Shown here one piece after another: positions 5,066 through 46,675 of a stretch of 64,000 bases of DNA (positions are counted from its first letter, which is position 1; every line of letters begins with the position of its first letter). The notes below the pieces were generated by a model, which saw only the letters and a list, made by a program, of their open reading frames with translations, was not told where the DNA came from and made no database searches. A program made the position numbers and the translations under genes. Source of the stretch: Chloroflexota bacterium (GTDB lineage Bacteria; Chloroflexota; UBA6077; JACCZL01). The DNA lies in NCBI GenBank assembly GCA_020850535.1, contig JADZEM010000013.1, forward strand, positions 1-64,000, written 5' to 3'.

Positions 5066-5309
5066 AGGTCCACCTCTCCATCGAGCGGCGCCGTGGCCGC
5101 CCGTCTCTCGCCCGGGCGCTCACGGCCCGGACGGTTCGCTCACTCGTCGACTTCGTCGTCGCGAAGCTCCACACACAGACGATGACAGCGTCAATGCTGC
5201 CACCGCGGGGAAGGCCGCCTCCTCGTCCAGGTCACGCGCACGTCAGCGTGCGCCGGTGGACTAGCGTACCGCTTACGAATCGTCTGGTCAATCGATCCCG
5301 TGTCCTGAA

Positions 5310-5526
5310 CAGGGCGATTGCATGTTGATGTCGTCGTGCCGCCGCGTCGGGGCTTGAAAGCCCCGCCTACGATCCTGCAGTCGCTGCGCGACGCTCCCGG
5401 CTCACCTGTCCCTGCCGTTCCCGACGGCCGTCGCGCAGCGACTGAATGACTGTAGGCGGGGACTTCAGTCCCCGACCGCCCGTTCTATGATGCTTCAGGT
5501 ACACCAACGAACATGCGATTGCCCTG
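5310..5526 (+). mobile_element. MITE-like element A (217 bp), first of a tandem pair
   Basis: The ends are CAGGGCGATTGCATG and its near inverted complement CATGCGATTGCCCTG. Inside lie two hairpins (GGGGCTTGAAAGCCCC and GGGGACTTCAGTCCCC) and inverted GTCGCTGCGCGAC / GTCGCGCAGCGAC arms, so the whole element folds as a long palindrome. The 10 bases just outside its left end (GTGTCCTGAA, 5300-5309) recur directly after element B at 5754-5763, as expected for a target-site duplication around the pair. It has no coding capacity. Confidence 0.85.
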
Positions 5527-5536
5527 CGGTCACGCG

Positions 5537-5753
5537 CAGGGCAATCGCATGGTGATGTCGTCGTGCGGCGGCGTCGGGGACTGAAGTCCCCGCCTACGAT
5601 CCTGCAGTCGCTGCGCGACGCCCCGGTCTCACCTGTTGCTGCTCTTCCCTGTGTCCGTCGCGCAGCGACTGAATGACTGTAGGCGGGGACTTCAGTCCCC
5701 GACCGACCGTTCCATGATGCTTCGGGTACACCAATGAACATGCAATCGCCCTG
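5537..5753 (+). mobile_element. MITE-like element B (217 bp), second of a tandem pair
   Basis: It has the same length, orientation and architecture as element A and is separated from it by exactly 10 bp (5527-5536). The right flank GTGTCCTGAA repeats the sequence to the left of A, so A-spacer-B appears to have inserted as a unit. Confidence 0.85.
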
Positions 5754-5786
5754 GTGTCCTGAATCGTCGGACAGGATCAGATCATC

Positions 5787-7733: not shown

Positions 7734-10463
7734 CTACGAGGTGCTCGGGGTGAGACGCTGGGTCGATTCGGCGTTGGCCTCGATGTCGGCGCGGTCCATC
7801 CAGAGCGGGTGGTACCGCCCGGCCAGCCAGTCGGCAAACTGGTCGGCGTAGTGTGCGCTGGCCGGGTTGCCGGAGTTGCCGGCCGTGTTGACGCCCCAGG
7901 TCTCGCCGGCCGGGCTCAGGTCGGCCAGGAAACGGTAGTGCGGGCCGCCCGTCGTCCAGAAGCGGTCGCGGATGGCGTAGCTGTTCTGGTTCAGCACGCC
8001 GTTGCCGCCCGGGCACGGCTTCGGCCCGATATCGAACAGCGCGGCGAAGATCGGGCGGCCAGCCGAGAGCGCGTGCGTCAGCTTGAGCGGGTGGAGGCGG
8101 CCCCAGGTCCACTGACGCCAGTCAGCGCCGAGGTTGGCGCGCAGCCAGCCGAGGGCTTCACGCATCGTTGATCGAACAAGGACGCTCACCGCCCGACCCG
8201 GTCGAGCCGCCGGGCCTGTGCGCGGGAGACGGGGAGCAACGACAGTCTCGTGTGCCTCCCCCGCTCCCTGTGCGCGGGATCGGGCAGCAACGTCATCGGC
8301 GTCGAGCCAGCCGAAGTCGCCCGCCACCAGCAGATCACGCGCGATCGAGCCGGACGCGCCCGCCATCGGCCCGAGCAGGTGCTTCGGGAAGCGGACGGCG
8401 GCGACCCGCTCGCACCAGCGCCACCAGAAGACGTTGAACAGCGAGGCCGCCACGCTCCCCAGCGTGAATTCGGCGTTCCATCGACGGAGCAACGTCGCTG
8501 CCCGGGCAAGGTCGTCAGCCTCAGGGCCAGAGTCGCCGGCCCCGCGAGCCAGCAGATCCGCCAGCGGACCCTTCAGCTCGGCGGCGCGCTCCGAGTAGAC
8601 GTCGTTGTGCATCGCCCCCATGTCGGCGAGGCTCATCGGGGCGGCCAGCAGGCCATCGCCGTCCAACACGGCGCGCATCCGCCGGCCCCGGTAGCCGTCA
8701 CCGTATGAGCCGTAGAGCGGCAGATCGCTGCCGTGGGGGTGCGGGCGCTGGTTCGACGAGCCGATCCAGCCACGCTCGGGGTCGGTCTCGGCAGGCAGCG
8801 TCTCGAAGGGCACCGGCTCCTGCCAACGGTCGTCCGGGTTGGCCGGCGAGCGGTAGCCGCGCACCTGCCGGCCCCGCACCGGGAACCGCCCGCGCATCTG
8901 GTAGCCGATGTGCCCCTGCGTGTCTGCGAAGCCGGGATTCTGGCCGGAGAACTGCCAGGCCGCGTGTGTCGCGCGGGCTTCGGCCGCCGTCTGCGCGCGG
9001 TTCAGCTCCAGGCCGCTGGTGATGCAGTCGCGCGGGTCCAGCCCGACCCACCGCAGGGCCAGCGGCGCATCGCCGTCAGGGGCCACGCTCGGGATCAGGT
9101 GGTTGACCAACGGGCCGCGCGGCCCCGTCCGCACGGTGAGGTGAACCGGGCCTGCCCCTCGGACCTGAATCGTCTCCTGGCGCGAGTCGAGCGTGGCCCA
9201 GCCGTCGCCCTCGCGGATCTCGTCGGCGTTCGCGGGGTTCCGCTCCTCGGCATAGAGGTCGCGGTTGGACGAGACGTTGTTGGTCAGGCCCCAGGCGACG
9301 CCGCGCGTGCGCCCGTTGTGCACCAGCGGCATACCCACGTCGGCAATCCCGATCACGTCCAGGTCGCCACCGACGAGATGGACCTCGTAGCGGGTGGAGG
9401 GCTGGTAGTAGGGGACGTGGCCGTCGCTGGCCAGCAGCGGCGCGCCGCTCGCAGAGCGTTTCGAGCCGATAGCCCACTGGTTGCTGCCCTGCGGCGGCAC
9501 GTCGCCGTCCCAGGCAGATGGAAGGCCCTCAGCCCCCGGCCGCTGCGCGGCGCAACTATCGACTGCGTCGATATCCCTCTCCCTGTGCGCGGGCGAGGGG
9601 GAGATGGCTCCCCCTCGCCCGCGCACAGGCCCGGCGGCCCGACTGGGTCGGGGGGTGGGGACCTCCCCGGTCCGGGGGCTGACGGCCTCCCGTCGTGACG
9701 GGAACGGCGGCAGGATCGTCTCCTCGGGCGCTTCGACGGTCAGGAACCGCGTCGCCAGGTCCGGCGGCAGCAGCCGCTCGGCAGCCTCGCCGATCACGAC
9801 GTTCTCGATGCGCCCGCTGAACTGCCACAGCGAAGCCCGCGCGATGGTGACGGTATCGATGGCACGCCAGGGAGCCGGCCGGATACCCAACACGTCGAAC
9901 TCGATGGGCAGACGGTCGCCGAACGCCACGATGGCCGCATTGACGCCAGCAGCGTACGCTTCCAGGATCGCCCGCGTCAGAGCAGGGTGCTCGGCATGCT
10001 CGGCCTCGGCGATCCGGTCGAACCGGAGCGTCCTGGCGGCCCGGTCCGAGGCCAGCGCCGCTGGCCCCAGCACCTCGGCCAGCGCGCCGTAGGCCCAGCG
10101 CCGCCGGTATTCGAGCTGCCAGAGCCGATCCTGTGCCACGACGAATCCCAGGCCGGCGTAGGCGTCTCGCTCCGATTGTGCGAAGACGTGCGGGATGCCG
10201 TGGCGGTCGCGGACGATCTCGACCGCCCCGCGAACCGCGGCAGCCAGCGCACCGGTCGTCCGCGGCAGGCGTGTCGCCAGCTCCTGACGAATCAGCCGGC
10301 GGAGCGCCGGCGGGGACATCCCCTCCTGCGCGGCAAACGTCGTCAGCGAACGGTCGCTCCGAAGCGCCGTCACCACCAGTTGCCGGCGCGCATCCGCCGA
10401 CCCACCCCGCACCCGGCCTCGCGACTCGGCGCTCACCACGTTCGCAACCCTCCCGGCAGGCAC
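7734..10463 (-). CDS. Penicillin-acylase-family N-terminal nucleophile hydrolase with in-frame repeat insertions
   Basis: The 909-residue product is a precursor of the penicillin/cephalosporin acylase family. The alpha-subunit region begins VEIVRDRHGIPHVFA and continues with a GFVVAQDRLWQLEYRRR motif. The beta-subunit nucleophile is Ser327 in GSNQWAIG, exposed after autocleavage. The family cleaves amide bonds of penicillins, acyl-homoserine lactones or related amides. Just before Ser327 lies about 55 residues of Pro/Arg-rich sequence encoded by a palindromic repeat (9524-9687), and a second related stretch falls near 8195-8290. No signal peptide is evident. The start is uncertain: GTG 10463 gives the longest product, and ATG 10319 is an alternative. 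Confidence 0.85.
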   Translation of the reverse strand: MPAGRVANVVSAESRGRVRGGSADARRQLVVTALRSDRSLTTFAAQEGMSPPALRRLIRQELATRLPRTTGALAAAVRGAVEIVRDRHGIPHVFAQSERDAYAGLGFVVAQDRLWQLEYRRRWAYGALAEVLGPAALASDRAARTLRFDRIAEAEHAEHPALTRAILEAYAAGVNAAIVAFGDRLPIEFDVLGIRPAPWRAIDTVTIARASLWQFSGRIENVVIGEAAERLLPPDLATRFLTVEAPEETILPPFPSRREAVSPRTGEVPTPRPSRAAGPVRGRGGAISPSPAHRERDIDAVDSCAAQRPGAEGLPSAWDGDVPPQGSNQWAIGSKRSASGAPLLASDGHVPYYQPSTRYEVHLVGGDLDVIGIADVGMPLVHNGRTRGVAWGLTNNVSSNRDLYAEERNPANADEIREGDGWATLDSRQETIQVRGAGPVHLTVRTGPRGPLVNHLIPSVAPDGDAPLALRWVGLDPRDCITSGLELNRAQTAAEARATHAAWQFSGQNPGFADTQGHIGYQMRGRFPVRGRQVRGYRSPANPDDRWQEPVPFETLPAETDPERGWIGSSNQRPHPHGSDLPLYGSYGDGYRGRRMRAVLDGDGLLAAPMSLADMGAMHNDVYSERAAELKGPLADLLARGAGDSGPEADDLARAATLLRRWNAEFTLGSVAASLFNVFWWRWCERVAAVRFPKHLLGPMAGASGSIARDLLVAGDFGWLDADDVAARSRAQGAGEAHETVVAPRLPRTGPAARPGRAVSVLVRSTMREALGWLRANLGADWRQWTWGRLHPLKLTHALSAGRPIFAALFDIGPKPCPGGNGVLNQNSYAIRDRFWTTGGPHYRFLADLSPAGETWGVNTAGNSGNPASAHYADQFADWLAGRYHPLWMDRADIEANAESTQRLTPSTS
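8195..8290. repeat. Degenerate CTGTGCGCGGG palindromic repeat inside the acylase gene
   Basis: Two inverted or direct copies of CTGTGCGCGGG flank a segment here, and the sequence resembles the repeats at 9524-9687 and 24649-24793. It is read in frame as about 30 extra residues in the beta subunit. The boundaries are approximate. Confidence 0.45.
9524..9687. repeat. Palindromic repeat element inserted in frame in the acylase gene
   Basis: The ends GGCCCTCAGCCCCCGG and CCGGGGGCTGACGGCC are inverted repeats, and the interior carries CCCTGTGCGCGGGCGAGG with its complement. The same element occurs outside genes at 24649-24793. In the acylase it encodes a Pro/Arg/Ser-rich segment immediately before the catalytic Ser, where the family's excised spacer peptide lies, so it may be tolerated because it is removed on maturation. 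Confidence 0.7.
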
Positions 10464-11370: not shown

Positions 11371-13188
11371 TCATGGTGGCGTCAGGCGGAACCGCACCAG
11401 CATGGGGTCGTGGTCGCTGGGTGCGCCGACGATCTCGGCGTTCCCATGCACCACGTCCACGTCGAGCACCGTCCCCAGCAGCGCCGGACTGGCGAGGATG
11501 TGGTCGATGGCCTCGGCCTGGCCGCCGAAGACGTAGCTGTACTGCTCATCCTCCGGCAACGTCGTGATGAGGTCCGCCAGGAGGCCGCCCGTGAGGTGCG
11601 CCAGCGTCTCTGAATCCGGGGTGTCGTTCAGGTCGCCCAGCACCAGCAGCAGCGCTTGCGGATCAGCAGCCAGCAGCTCGGCGGCAAAGGCATGGACCTC
11701 GCGGGCCTGGGCCTGCCGCCGGGTGTCGGTGGGGGAGCCGGGCGGCTGGAACCGGCCGAGGCGCGGCTGGCTGCCGCGCTTCGAGGCGAAGTGGCACCCG
11801 ACCACGAACAGCCGCCGACCGTTGAAGGTCAGCTCGGCGGCCAGCGGCTTGCGACTCTCGGTCCAGGCCGGGCTGGCTGGGGCCACCCGCCCCGGGCTGA
11901 TCGAGAGGTGCGGGCCATCGGCATCGGGCACGACGGCCACGGGTGTGACAGCATCCCCGCCCGGCCGCTCGACGAACGCCAATCCACGGTCCGCCCGCAC
12001 CAGCACCCCGATCCGGATGTTCGCGCCCGGCTCGCCGCCGTCCAGGTTGTTCTCCGGCGCGATCTCTCGGTAGGTGTAGGCCGGGCCGCCGGCCGCCAGG
12101 ATCGCGTCGGTCAGCACGCGGCCGGTCCGCCCTGCGCCGACCGTGCCATCGTCAGCCGCGCCGCTGTCGTCCTGGATCTCCTGCACCACCACGAGATCCG
12201 GCGCGGCCAGCCGCGTCACGACCGTTTCGGCGAGGCGGGTCAGTTTGGCCGGCCGCTCGCGCGGGCTGACGTTCTCGACGTTGAAGGTCGCCACCGCGAG
12301 GACGGACGGATCGGTCATCGGCTCGTTGCTGGCCGCTTCCGGGCCGATCCCGCCGAGGATCAGCGACGGCAGCGTCTCGGTGCGGATGCGGTAGCCGCCG
12401 AAGGCGTAGTCTACGATGCCGACCGTCTGCCCCGGCAGGCGATCCCCGACGCTGGCCGGCGGCACCCGCACAGCGCCGTCCACCAGCACCAGGCTCGGAG
12501 CGGCCTCGCCGGGCGGCGGCGCGAGCAGGCCGCCGCGCACCGTCCGCCGCGGCACGCCAGTCCCCTCGTCTGGCAGGACCGGCAGCTCGCCGGGACCGCC
12601 GCGCGGCCCGACCACGATGGCATCGTCGATCTGGACGCGCATCCCCTCCAGGCTCTCGAAGAAGTCGAGGGTGCTCGCGTCTGGCGCGTACAGGCCGGCC
12701 TGCTCGACATCGCCACTGACACCCTCGGCCACCACCTGCGCGGGGGCGCTCCGGCCGCGTGGTCCCAGGAGGACGGGCGACGGCAGCGGCTGCCCGGACG
12801 CCACTACGGAGACGGTCGGCCCGACGATCTCCGTCACCGACAGGTTGTTCTCGTCATCCCCCGGCCGGAATTCACGGATCTGCCCGGAGACCAGGACGCT
12901 GTCGCCCACCGAGACGGCTGCCGCACTCCGCGTGAAGACGAACACGGCGTCCGAGGTGTCCGGCCGGCCATCGCCCTCGGCGTCCTGCAGCGAGAAGCCG
13001 TTGTTCCGCACCGCCGTGACGATGCCCGGCACGCCCTCCACCAGCCGCCCGGCCAGCGGCGAGACGTGCGCCGCACCCTGGATCTCGAACACCCGCACTC
13101 TGGCCGACCGCGGCTGTGGCGCCGCCGCCAGCAGGAGGGCGCTCAGGAGCGCGAGCGCCAACCACGCTTGACGAGAACGTAGACGCAT
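11371..13188 (-). CDS. Secreted endonuclease/exonuclease/phosphatase-family protein (ExeM/NucH-like)
   Basis: The 605-residue product begins with a signal peptide (MRLRSRQAWLALALLSALLL then AAAPQPRSA). An OB-like N-terminal region (residues ~35-270, with FEIQG and VPGIVTAV) resembles that of extracellular nucleases of the ExeM/NucH type. A C-terminal EEP domain has FNVENVSP, the metal-binding Glu in VVQEIQDD, GCHFASKRG, GDLNDTPDSE and the catalytic SDHDPM. It is probably an exported DNase or phosphodiesterase. The frame is open further upstream but only through the mobile repeat at 13281-13494, so the internal ATG at 13188 is preferred. The ATG at 13200 is an alternative. No clear Shine-Dalgarno is visible. 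Confidence 0.8.
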   Translation of the reverse strand: MRLRSRQAWLALALLSALLLAAAPQPRSARVRVFEIQGAAHVSPLAGRLVEGVPGIVTAVRNNGFSLQDAEGDGRPDTSDAVFVFTRSAAAVSVGDSVLVSGQIREFRPGDDENNLSVTEIVGPTVSVVASGQPLPSPVLLGPRGRSAPAQVVAEGVSGDVEQAGLYAPDASTLDFFESLEGMRVQIDDAIVVGPRGGPGELPVLPDEGTGVPRRTVRGGLLAPPPGEAAPSLVLVDGAVRVPPASVGDRLPGQTVGIVDYAFGGYRIRTETLPSLILGGIGPEAASNEPMTDPSVLAVATFNVENVSPRERPAKLTRLAETVVTRLAAPDLVVVQEIQDDSGAADDGTVGAGRTGRVLTDAILAAGGPAYTYREIAPENNLDGGEPGANIRIGVLVRADRGLAFVERPGGDAVTPVAVVPDADGPHLSISPGRVAPASPAWTESRKPLAAELTFNGRRLFVVGCHFASKRGSQPRLGRFQPPGSPTDTRRQAQAREVHAFAAELLAADPQALLLVLGDLNDTPDSETLAHLTGGLLADLITTLPEDEQYSYVFGGQAEAIDHILASPALLGTVLDVDVVHGNAEIVGAPSDHDPMLVRFRLTPP

Positions 13189-13280
13189 GGCGCGTATCAT
13201 ACGTGCAATCCACATATGCATATGGCAGGAACGGCCAGCAGCCCGCGACGCACAGCCTGACTGCATCCGTCCTGCCGTCT

Positions 13281-13494
13281 CGGGGCGATTGCACGTTCGG
13301 CGAGTCGTGCGTCGTCGGGGCTTGAAAGCCCCGCCTACCATCCTGCAGTCGCTTCGCGACGCTCCAGGCTCACCAGTCCCTGCCGTTCCCGGCGTCCGTC
13401 GCGCAGCGACGGAATGACTGTAGGCGGGGGTTTCAACCCCCGACTGCGCGTTGCATGGCGTTGCGGGAACGTCAACGAACATGCAATCGCCCTG
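13281..13494 (+). mobile_element. MITE-like element C (214 bp) with 10-bp target duplication
   Basis: This is a single copy with ends CGGGGCGATTGCACGTT and AACATGCAATCGCCCTG. It is flanked by a perfect 10-bp direct repeat CCTGCCGTCT at 13271-13280 and 13495-13504, the clearest evidence in the window that this family transposes. It carries the same inner hairpins (GGGGCTTGAAAGCCCC and GGGGGTTTCAACCCCC). It sits upstream of the nuclease gene. Confidence 0.9.
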
Positions 13495-13601
13495 CCTGCC
13501 GTCTCGGGCGCAACGAGGTCAGCCGGCCGGCCGGGCTATGATGCCCCCTGCGACGCCCGTCCACTACCTGCCCCACTACCTGCCAATGACGGAGGGAGCC
13601 G

Positions 13602-24513: not shown

Positions 24514-25166
24514 CGGATGCCCTCCTGCTGCTCCCGTCTCATCATGAGAGTGTAGACGGAAGCAGCAGCGTGGCACCTGATCGGCCGCTGCGACAGCAGG
24601 GAGCGAGCAGTCGGGGGTTGATGACGATTGATTCTTTCCTGTGGTAAAGGCCCTCACCCCCCGACCGCTGCGCGGCGCAAATATCGACTGCGTCGACATC
24701 CCTCTCCCTGTGCGCGGGCGAGGGGGAGACACACGAGACAGTGATTCTCCCCCTCGCCCGCGCACAGGGAGAGGGGGTCGGGGGGTGAGGGCCTCCAGCC
24801 TGGAGCACGGAACACGTGGTTAATCCGTCAGTCCTCATCAAGCCCCGACGACGCTGCACGACGCTGGCTACGACAGCATGCTTTGTGATCTGGGCGCTTA
24901 GCTTGCCCGGCGCAGCGCGATCATCCCATCGTCCATGCCGTGCTCGGCGTCGGCGTCGAGGTCTGCGCCGACGCCAGCGTGGAACCGCGTCACCAGCTCC
25001 TGCAGCAGCTCGGCGGTGCGGGCCAGATCCTCGGCCTGCTTCGCCACCGCGCCCTGCTCCTGACGGATGGAGTTGCTGACGAGCCAGACGCCGCCGCCCA
25101 GGAGGGCGGCAAGCGCCAGAAAGATGCTGCTCGCGGCGATGCTGATAGTCGATTGCTTCACGGCCA
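24514..25166. other. Intergenic region with palindromic repeat and a possible small membrane-protein gene
   Basis: The main feature is the palindromic element at 24649-24793. A small minus-strand reading frame (24898-25167) occupies the distal part. Nothing else is recognised. Confidence 0.45.
24649..24793. repeat. Palindromic repeat element (GGCCCTCACC family)
   Basis: Perfect 18-bp terminal inverted repeats GGCCCTCACCCCCCGACC enclose a long inner palindrome built on CCCTCTCCCTGTGCGCGGGC. A close relative is embedded in frame in the acylase gene at 9524-9687. It is non-coding here. Confidence 0.9.
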
Positions 25167-38317: not shown

Positions 38318-38535
38318 TAGGGCAATCGTATGTTCATTGGCGTTCCCAGAACGCGGTAAGACGGGCAGTCGGGGGTTGAAACCCCCGTCTACAGGCATGC
38401 AGTCGCTGCGCGACGAAGGACGAGAACAGCCGTCGTCCGGTGAGACTGGAGCGTCGCGCAGCGACTGCAGGATGGTAGGCGGGGCTTTCAAGCCCCGACG
38501 AGGCGGCACGACAACATCAACATGCGATCGCTCCG
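38318..38535 (-). mobile_element. MITE-like element D (218 bp), first of a tandem pair
   Basis: This copy is in the opposite orientation to A and B, with degraded ends (TAGGGCAATCGTATG and CATGCGATCGCTCCG). The hairpins GGGGGTTGAAACCCCC and GGGGCTTTCAAGCCCC are intact. It is separated from E by exactly 10 bp (38536-38545). Confidence 0.8.
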
Positions 38536-38545
38536 GCTCGTGACC

Positions 38546-38763
38546 CAGGGCGATTGCATGTTCGTTGGTGTCCCCGAAGCATCATGGAACGGGCGGTCGG
38601 GGACTGAAGTCCCCGCCTACAGTCACGCCGTCGCTTCGCGACGAAGGACGAGAACAGCCGTCGTCCGGTGAGACTGGAGCGTCGCGCAGCGACTGCAGGA
38701 TGGGAGGCGGGGCTTTCAAGCCCCGACGACGCTGCACGGCCTGCCGAACGTGCAATCGCCCTG
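38546..38763 (-). mobile_element. MITE-like element E (218 bp), second of a tandem pair
   Basis: The ends are CAGGGCGATTGCATGTT and CGTGCAATCGCCCTG. It ends 15 bases downstream of the parB stop codon. The spacer to D, read in element orientation, shares GGTCACG with the spacer between A and B, suggesting the A-B and E-D dimers may share an ancestor. Confidence 0.85.
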
Positions 38764-44415: not shown

Positions 44416-44487
44416 TCGTGGATCAGGGATCGTAGATCGTGGGAAAGACACGCATCCTCCCCACGATCTACGATCCCTGATCCACGA
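44416..44487. repeat. 28-bp perfect inverted repeat (long hairpin)
   Basis: The arms 44416-44443 and 44460-44487 are perfectly complementary over 28 bases with a 16-base loop. It abuts the 3' end of the aminotransferase gene and may end its transcript and shield rpmH. The arms contain GATCGTGG-type heptamer-like units related to the tandem heptamers elsewhere. Confidence 0.9.
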
Positions 44488-45780: not shown

Positions 45781-46127
45781 CGTGGTTGCTCCAGCCGAGA
45801 GGTAGGTCGGACGCCATGTGCGGCGTGGGCGGCACACATCGACGACCACGTACCTGCGGCGTGCGTCGGACGACGATATCTGGCCCGCTCTGCCAGCCGA
45901 AGGAGAATCGTACCGGTCGGCGGAAGCGGGCAGCTATCGGCAGAATCCGCTAACGGATGTCCATGAGGGTCGTTGGGCGCAGCCCAGTCTGACCAGTTGC
46001 GTCTGTGGCGCTCGCCAGTGGTCTGTCAGTCGTGAACGACCGGGTTGGACCTCTGCCGACGCTTCACCGTCATCCCGAGCGAAGCGACCCGTTCGGCACG
46101 CGCAGGGCAAGCCTGCCACCCTCCCCC

Positions 46128-46344
46128 CAGGGCGATTGCATGTTCATTGGTGTACCCGAAGCATCGTGGAACAGGCGGTCGGGGACTGAAGTCCCCGCCT
46201 ACACGCATTCAGTCGCTGCGCGACGGCCGTCGGGAACGGCCGGCACTGGTGCGACTGGAGCGTCGCGCAGCGACTGCAGGATGGTAGGCGGGGCTTTCAA
46301 GCCCCGACGCGGCGGCACGACGACATCAACATGCGATTGCCCTG
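46128..46344 (-). mobile_element. MITE-like element F (217 bp), first of a tandem pair
   Basis: Same architecture as A-E, with CAGGGCGATTGCATGTT and CATGCGATTGCCCTG ends. It is separated from G by exactly 10 bp (46345-46354). No outer 10-bp duplication is visible. Confidence 0.85.
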
Positions 46345-46354
46345 GCAGCAGCAT

Positions 46355-46557
46355 CAGGGCGATGGCATGACGAGCACGTCCTGCGACCTCGTCGGGGACT
46401 GAAGTCCCCGCCTACACTCATTCAGTCGCTGCGCGACGGTCGTCGGGAACGGCAGGCACTGGTGCGACTGGAGCGTCGCGCAGCGACTGCAGGATGGTAG
46501 GCGGGGCTTTCAAGCCCCGACGAGGCGGCACGACGACATCAACATGCGATTGCCCTG
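46355..46557 (-). mobile_element. MITE-like element G (203 bp), second of a tandem pair
   Basis: The left terminal region is shortened and divergent (CAGGGCGATGGCATGACGAG), while the right half matches F closely. It is the shortest copy. Confidence 0.8.
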
Positions 46558-46569
46558 ACGACCTCTCCC

Positions 46570-46675
46570 GTTATCCCGAGCGGAGTGAGCGTGCGAACGC
46601 AGTCGAGGGATCTTCCTCGCTCCCGTGTCTGGGGAAGATCCCACTTCGCTCGTGCCTCGCCGCGGTCGGGATGAC
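46570..46675. repeat. Inverted-repeat element, TCATCC family (copy 4)
   Basis: It begins GTTATCCCGAGCGGAGTGAG and ends GTCGGGATGAC, with inner GGGATCTTC and GAAGATCCC arms, as in copy 2 at 2640-2757. Confidence 0.75.

What the first reader, a model, noticed from the sequence alone, without database searches (positions are those of the whole stretch)
13271..13504. Single MITE-like copy with a perfect 10-bp target duplication
CCTGCCGTCT lies immediately on both sides of the 214-bp element, the clearest sign that this family inserts by a 10-bp staggered cut. It also puts a mobile palindrome at the 5' side of the nuclease gene and probably misleads gene prediction upstream of ATG 13188.
Basis: seen in the sequence. 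Interest (0 to 1): 0.7.

Follow-up and report, generated by a model that had tools for sequence, protein, structure and literature searches.

The report
ISAs1-type mini-transposon with 10-bp footprint
The 214-base hairpin beside the nuclease gene is a real tiny jumping-DNA element, one of roughly three hundred in this Chloroflexota-type genome; it appears to borrow the machinery of an ISAs1-family insertion sequence, and many of its relatives travel as tandem pairs that look locked together by damage to an inner end.

Summary
Confirmed. 13281-13494 (214 bp) is a non-autonomous element with imperfect terminal inverted repeats and a perfect 10-bp target duplication (CCTGCCGTCT). The genome holds 570 matches to its terminus at up to 1 mismatch (reversed control 0), so roughly 285 or more copies. 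Of 86 distinct full-length copies read, 61 are 217 bp and 34 of 85 with readable flanks have at least 9/10 target duplications. Paralogous empty sites inside other repeats carry one copy of the 10-mer, so insertion creates the duplication.

The likely transposase source is identified. A relative in the same taxonomic family has one 1256-bp ISAs1-family IS with both termini exactly CAGGGCGATTGCATG; the window's genome has two truncated ISAs1 remnants with near-identical ends. In ISAs1 elements from many phyla, all 26 detectable target duplications were exactly 10 bp.

Beyond the finding: many copies form head-to-tail dimers with exactly 10 bp between units. Two dimer lineages (spacers GTAGCAGCAT, about 60 copies; GTTCGTGACT, about 20) spread as units. 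In both, the left unit's inner terminus is mutated while outer termini are intact, suggesting that loss of an inner end locks the pair. The copy itself is an ordinary MITE; the locked dimers are the new part.

The parts
13271..13280 (.). left copy of the 10-bp target-site duplication CCTGCCGTCT
13281..13295 (+). left terminal inverted repeat CGGGGCGATTGCACG (2 mismatches to the family end CAGGGCGATTGCATG, one at the second base of the tip)
13281..13494 (.). the non-autonomous element (MITE), 214 bp, near-palindromic; family consensus length 217
13316..13333 (.). left mini-hairpin CGGGGCTT-GA-AAGCCCCG
13348..13360 (.). left small palindrome GTCGCTTCGCGAC
13398..13410 (.). right small palindrome GTCGCGCAGCGAC
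13425..13442 (.). right mini-hairpin CGGGGGTT-TC-AACCCCCG, preceded by GTAG at 13420-13423; pairs with itself, not fully with the left one
13480..13494 (-). right terminal inverted repeat, exact CAGGGCGATTGCATG on the minus strand; its ATG at 13482 opens the spurious N-terminal extension
13495..13504 (.). right copy of the 10-bp target-site duplication CCTGCCGTCT
5300..5763 (.). head-to-tail dimer of the same family: units 5310-5526 and 5537-5753, 10-bp spacer CGGTCACGCG, outer duplication GTGTCCTGAA on both sides
38318..38763 (.). dimer: units 38318-38535 and 38546-38763, spacer GCTCGTGACC (GTTCGTGACT lineage), damaged inner end CGGAGCGATCGCATG
46128..46557 (.). dimer: units 46128-46344 and 46355-46557, spacer GCAGCAGCAT (GTAGCAGCAT lineage); no outer duplication recognisable

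Best explanation
The element is a MITE of the ISAs1 group: two CAGGGC-type terminal inverted repeats enclosing a non-coding, hairpin-rich core unrelated to the IS. An ISAs1-family DDE transposase acting in trans (inferred) binds the ends and inserts the element at a 10-bp staggered cut; gap repair leaves the 10-bp duplication. This copy landed between two divergent genes, an ExeM/NucH-like nuclease on the minus strand and a cupin gene on the plus strand. Shown: ends, 10-bp duplications at many independent sites, single-copy empty sites in paralogous repeats, a same-family IS with identical ends, the family's 10-bp rule, and lineage-restricted amplification. Inferred: that an ISAs1 transposase moved these copies (the assembly contains only truncated remnants) and that movement is now weak or finished. 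An additional layer, also inferred from sequence: monomers with duplication T become T-E-T-E-T, by slippage or unequal exchange between the two T copies or by transposase-made dimerisation. The pair E-T-E then moves by its outer ends, and damage to the left unit's inner end favours the dimer as the mobile unit.
For: 10-bp duplications. Empty sites. Copy number in the own genome; relatives have 0-2 ends each, and the only two in G001 are the tips of its ISAs1 IS. IS with exact termini; ISAs1 transposase NF033564 at 397 bits, PF13808 and PF01609. Own-genome ISAs1 remnants with ends CAGGGGGATTGCATA and CAGGGCGATTGTATA. All 26 detectable duplications in ISAs1 loci of many phyla are 10 bp. Dimers.
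Against: No intact ISAs1 copy was found in the window's own genome. The IS copy in G001 has a frameshift near its C-terminus and no recognisable target duplication. Beyond the first 15-21 bp of the ends there is little similarity between MITE and IS. No empty site could be shown for this very copy.
Confidence: 0.92

Rival explanations
1. The palindrome is a REP/BIME-type repeat cluster (GTAG- or CGTC-tagged REPs) spread by a Y1 tyrosine (RAYT) transposase, and the flanking repeats are incidental.
For: The core contains GTAG followed by a short palindrome and CGTC-tagged palindromes; GTAG-tagged REPs are described in Chloroflexi, including T. roseum (PMC3733652).
Against: No Y1_Tnp match in the genome. 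126 of the 158 GGGG-N8-CCCC sites in 1.25 Mb, and 115 of the 120 with fully paired triplets, lie within 260 bp of an element end. Y1 elements make no target duplication (established knowledge), while these have exact 10-bp ones.
Confidence: 0.04
2. The 10-bp repeats pre-existed or are chance.
For: This copy alone cannot exclude it; there is no empty-site genome for this locus.
Against: 29 exact 10/10 duplications with different sequences, against 3 of 1000 random placements with any comparable duplication; empty paralogues with one copy.
Confidence: 0.01
3. It is mainly a structured RNA or regulatory hairpin kept for function in the host.
For: Very stable fold. Local hairpins keep pairing while their sequence changes (495/510 positions paired locally against 249/510 across arms and 321 in shuffles). 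Sub-threshold Acido-Lenti-1 match (23.4 bits against a cut-off of 37).
Against: No Rfam family reaches its threshold; the hairpin variants reflect only a few ancestral types; quasi-palindrome correction during replication could keep the pairing without selection (established mechanism, not tested); copies sit at unrelated loci and are absent from relatives.
Confidence: 0.05
4. For the dimers: tandem pairs arise by independent insertion of a second element next to a first, with no special mobile dimer.
For: Would also leave a 10-bp spacer if the target were the first copy's own duplication.
Against: All nine dimers tested are head-to-tail; the same two spacers recur at about 60 and about 20 unrelated loci; several dimers have their own outer 10/10 duplication.
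Confidence: 0.1

Closest known systems
ISAs1-family insertion sequences (NF033564; PF13808 + PF01609)
   Same: Terminal sequence CAGGGC..., 10-bp target duplication; the same-family relative's IS has both 15-bp ends identical to the MITE's
   Different: The MITE has no gene, is 217 bp instead of about 1250 bp, and shares essentially only the tips
Bacterial MITEs (Correia/NEMIS, RUP, Nezha, MITEPye1)
   Same: Short, non-coding, imperfect palindrome, TIRs, duplications, presumed movement in trans
   Different: Different transposase family and duplication length; tandem dimers as amplified units were not found described for these in the papers searched
IS30-type (IS)2 tandem dimers (PMC9333248)
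   Same: Directly repeated tandem copies joined at their ends, able to move as a unit
   Different: IS30 dimers are reactive intermediates made by its own transposase, with 2-bp duplications; here the pairs are stable, amplified, non-autonomous, with 10-bp spacers and a damaged inner end
Tandem CMITE arrays of corals (PMC2872659)
   Same: Tandem arrays of full-size MITEs; replication slippage proposed
   Different: Eukaryotic piggyBac-type with TTAA duplications; no lineage of mobile dimers with a damaged inner end was noted in the passages read

Membership tests
MITE (non-autonomous DNA element) | short, no coding capacity, terminal inverted repeats | tested here: met
   214 bp, 17-bp arms 94% complementary; the long frames crossing it run on into flanking sequence
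MITE (non-autonomous DNA element) | target-site duplication of constant length | tested here: met
   10 bp at 34 of 85 full-length copies with readable flanks (at least 9/10), 29 of them exact; one 12-bp case
MITE (non-autonomous DNA element) | multiple dispersed copies | tested here: met
   570 termini in 7.65 Mb
MITE (non-autonomous DNA element) | moved in trans by a transposase recognising the same ends | not testable with these tools
   partner IS identified by sequence only
ISAs1-associated | termini of the ISAs1 type (CAGGGC...) | tested here: met
   exact match to both ends of the G001 IS; similar ends on ISAs1 loci of other phyla
ISAs1-associated | 10-bp duplication | tested here: met
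   26 of 26 detectable ISAs1 duplications are 10 bp
ISAs1-associated | sequence shared with the IS beyond the tips (deletion derivative) | tested here: not met
   only the terminal 15-26 bp match clearly; one copy has a weaker 48-bp match at one end, 79%
REP/BIME with RAYT | Y1 tyrosine transposase in the genome | tested here: not met
   no PF01797 match
Acido-Lenti-1 RNA (RF01687) | score above the gathering threshold | tested here: not met
   23.4 bits against 37

The most novel reading that the evidence does not exclude
The family spreads largely as compound dimers: a monomer's 10-bp duplication becomes the spacer of a head-to-tail pair, and loss of one inner terminus (seen in two dimer lineages with different lesions) turns the pair into a new, larger non-autonomous transposon. 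Spacers would then record the insertion site of the ancestor.
Probability: 0.5. Interest if true: 0.62.

Novelty: new variant of a known kind. Interest (0 to 1): 0.48.

Why it matters
It ties a large, lineage-restricted MITE burst to ISAs1, a family for which I found no MITE literature in the papers searched. It shows how a non-autonomous element may step up from monomer to dimer with a readable history (the 10-bp spacer). Practically, such copies supply false start codons to neighbouring genes and appear to break assemblies, since many contigs end in them.

Tried and rejected
The core pattern had wrong spacing (my error; its zero is meaningless). The hairpin count was off by one and is superseded. 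RAYT origin rejected. Rfam matches rejected as sub-threshold. Plasmid and phage collections gave no match; two viral contigs have one isolated terminus each and no element. Empty site at this locus through the cupin neighbour: not syntenic in the same-family relative. Sigma-70 promoter or terminator in the insert: none. Literature: no paper tying a MITE to ISAs1 was found. The idea that a monomer at C143:299-515 (flanks TGGTCACGCG / CGGTCACCTG) represents the ancestral state of the window dimer with spacer CGGTCACGCG is suggestive only.

Full report
OBSERVATION. The window reads CCTGCCGTCT | CGGGGCGATTGCACG ... CATGCAATCGCCCTG | CCTGCCGTCT, with the element at 13281-13494. The repeat finder reports the direct repeat as 14 nt because both continuations start CGGG. 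The right terminus is exact; the left terminus has two mismatches, including the second base of the tip. The terminal arms are 17 nt and 94% complementary, with a second pair of 53-nt arms at 81%. As single-stranded DNA the stretch folds at -74 kcal/mol against -48.5 for shuffles.

FAMILY. In the window's own genome (G000, 7.65 Mb, 227 contigs) a BLAST first look finds 471 candidates, and the pattern CAGGGCGATTGCAYGTT with at most one mismatch has 570 matches against 0 for the reversed control. That is roughly 285 copies (inference: two ends each, diverged ends missed). In the 61-genome relatives search no other genome holds a full-length relative; the single hit outside G000 is a 30-bp match in G060. 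In a 41-genome relatives search with the terminus alone, other genomes have 0-2 matches. Of 86 distinct full-length copies 61 are 217 bp; 29 of 85 with readable flanks have exact and 34 at least 9/10 duplications of 10 bp. In about 1.25 Mb of stitched contigs, 23 of 50 elements have a 10-bp duplication with at most one mismatch and one has 12 bp, while 1000 random placements gave three comparable duplications of any length.

EMPTY SITES. Joining the flanks of 50 occupied sites with one duplication copy and searching the held sequence found uninterrupted paralogues for copies that sit inside other repeats. The clearest, L018 (GGGTGAGGTC), has paralogues with exactly one GGGTGAGGTC or GGGTGAGATC at the junction; L023 and C143:92248 behave alike with one or two substitutions. 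The second copy is therefore made by insertion. For the copy at 13281 itself no empty site is available.

PARENT ELEMENT. From my knowledge that ISAs1 elements begin CAGGG and duplicate 8-10 bp, I searched PF13808. The own genome has two hits; each has one terminus close to the MITE's (CAGGGGGATTGCATA and CAGGGCGATTGTATA) and both are truncated or frameshifted. The same-family genome G001 (Chloroflexi MAG MGR_bin229, JACCZL01) has one 1256-bp element, L100:1391-2646, with CAGGGCGATTGCATG at both tips; these are the only two such termini found in that genome. Its transposase is ISAs1 by NF033564 (397 bits, cut-off 70) and carries PF13808 and PF01609; its C-terminus is frameshifted. L101 in another family of the order is an ISAs1 IS with a 10/10 duplication. 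As a control for the family's cut, I looked for paired termini in 53 ISAs1 loci from many phyla: where a duplication was detectable (26 cases) it was always 10 bp. Similarity between MITE and IS is clear only over the terminal 15-26 bases (one copy shows a weaker 48-bp match at one end), so it is not a simple internal deletion of that IS.

CORE. Each 217-bp unit has two mini-hairpins (GGGGNNN-NN-NNNCCCC) and two smaller palindromes. The variable triplets pair locally in 495 of 510 positions, but only 249 of 510 pair across the arms, and shuffling gives 321. Three palindromic types dominate (CTT/AAG, ACT/AGT, GTT/AAC). The pairing is thus kept within each small hairpin rather than along the long one; only a few ancestral changes underlie this, and quasi-palindrome correction could explain it without selection (inference). 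In held sequence, 115 of the 120 sites of this form with fully paired triplets lie within 260 bp of an element end, so they are not free REPs. No Y1 transposase match exists in the genome.

DIMERS. Of 16 near-exact end-to-end junctions genome-wide, 12 have exactly 10 bp between the ends; with looser ends in held sequence, 30 of 48 candidate gaps under 40 bp are exactly 10 (two of these 30 look like chance) and no other gap length occurs more than twice. All nine dimers tested are head-to-tail. Several carry their own 10/10 outer duplication (window 5310-5753 GTGTCCTGAA; C143:57178; C21:4915; C29:57994; C25:9090; also L246, L248, L272, L274, L275). Spacer GTAGCAGCAT next to a terminus occurs at 61 places and GTTCGTGACT at about 18-22, so two dimers were amplified as units. 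In the first, the inner end of the left unit is CAGTGC or similar in 26 of 29 junctions while outer ends are CAGGGC in 30 of 35; in the second, CGGAGC or similar in 15 of 18 against 21 of 25 intact outer ends (Fisher p 1e-9 and 2e-5, but copies within a lineage are not independent, so this amounts to two principal events). The inner right end cannot be judged because the search pattern required it. My reading: with that inner end dead, the left outer end can only pair with the far outer end, so the pair moves together. Units within a dimer are no more distant from each other (0.89) than copies are across dimers (0.875), which fits duplication of one element rather than union of two subfamilies. 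The copy in the finding belongs to a different subfamily (nearest L002 at 93.5%; about 0.81-0.82 to dimer units).

CONSEQUENCE AT THE LOCUS. The element sits between an ExeM/NucH-like nuclease gene (minus) and a cupin gene (plus) (the nuclease match is below the NCBIfam cut-off but PF03372 is above its own). The ATG in the right terminus (13482) creates a 703-aa frame; the first 98 residues are element, duplication and intergenic sequence, and a signal-peptide-like start begins at 13188. No sigma-70 promoter or terminator pattern is present, so a regulatory effect is not suggested by these scans.

VERDICT. The observation and the main interpretation hold. The copy is an ordinary ISAs1-type MITE. 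The dimer lineages are the less ordinary result and rest on sequence only.

Noticed in passing
C123:34368-34661 and C41:74870-75148 of G000: Copies of the MITE whose core is replaced by another long palindrome (CCCTCACCCCCCGACCCCCTCTCCC...), apparently nested insertion of a second palindromic family; one keeps a 9/10 duplication.
   Followed up: no
window 24694-24780 and near 9598: Long near-perfect palindromes (CCCTCTCCCTGTGCGCGGGCGAGGGGG...) resembling that second palindromic family; Rfam's miRNA matches at the first are sub-threshold.
   Followed up: no
window 44425-44478: A near-perfect inverted repeat AGGGATCGTAGATCGTGGG...; only a sub-threshold miRNA match.
   Followed up: no
C187:29414, C187:100093, C135:70124, C143:79606 of G000: A 108-bp half-size version with a single central mini-hairpin and the same termini, possibly the ancestral or a deleted form.
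   Followed up: partly
C38:7841, C143:31102 and C10 (L221) of G000: Dimer-like copies in which the left unit's right end and the spacer are missing so that GGCGGCACGACG joins directly to CAGGG; one (C38) has a 10/10 outer duplication.
   Followed up: partly
many contig ends of G000 (C15, C18, C25, C27, C41, C42, C56, C57, C59, C60, C64, C65 ...): Element termini lie within a few hundred bases of contig ends, so the family probably fragments this assembly and copy numbers are underestimated.
   Followed up: no
window 46072-46087 and 46573-46588: A short direct repeat ATCCCGAGCGAAGCGA flanks the dimer at 46128-46557 about 40 bp out on the left and 15 bp out on the right, perhaps part of another repeat into which it inserted.
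   Followed up: no
window 13397-13443 (minus strand): Sub-threshold likeness (23.4 bits, cut-off 37) of the hairpin-CUA-hairpin core to Rfam Acido-Lenti-1; worth asking whether that family is a mobile repeat.
   Followed up: partly
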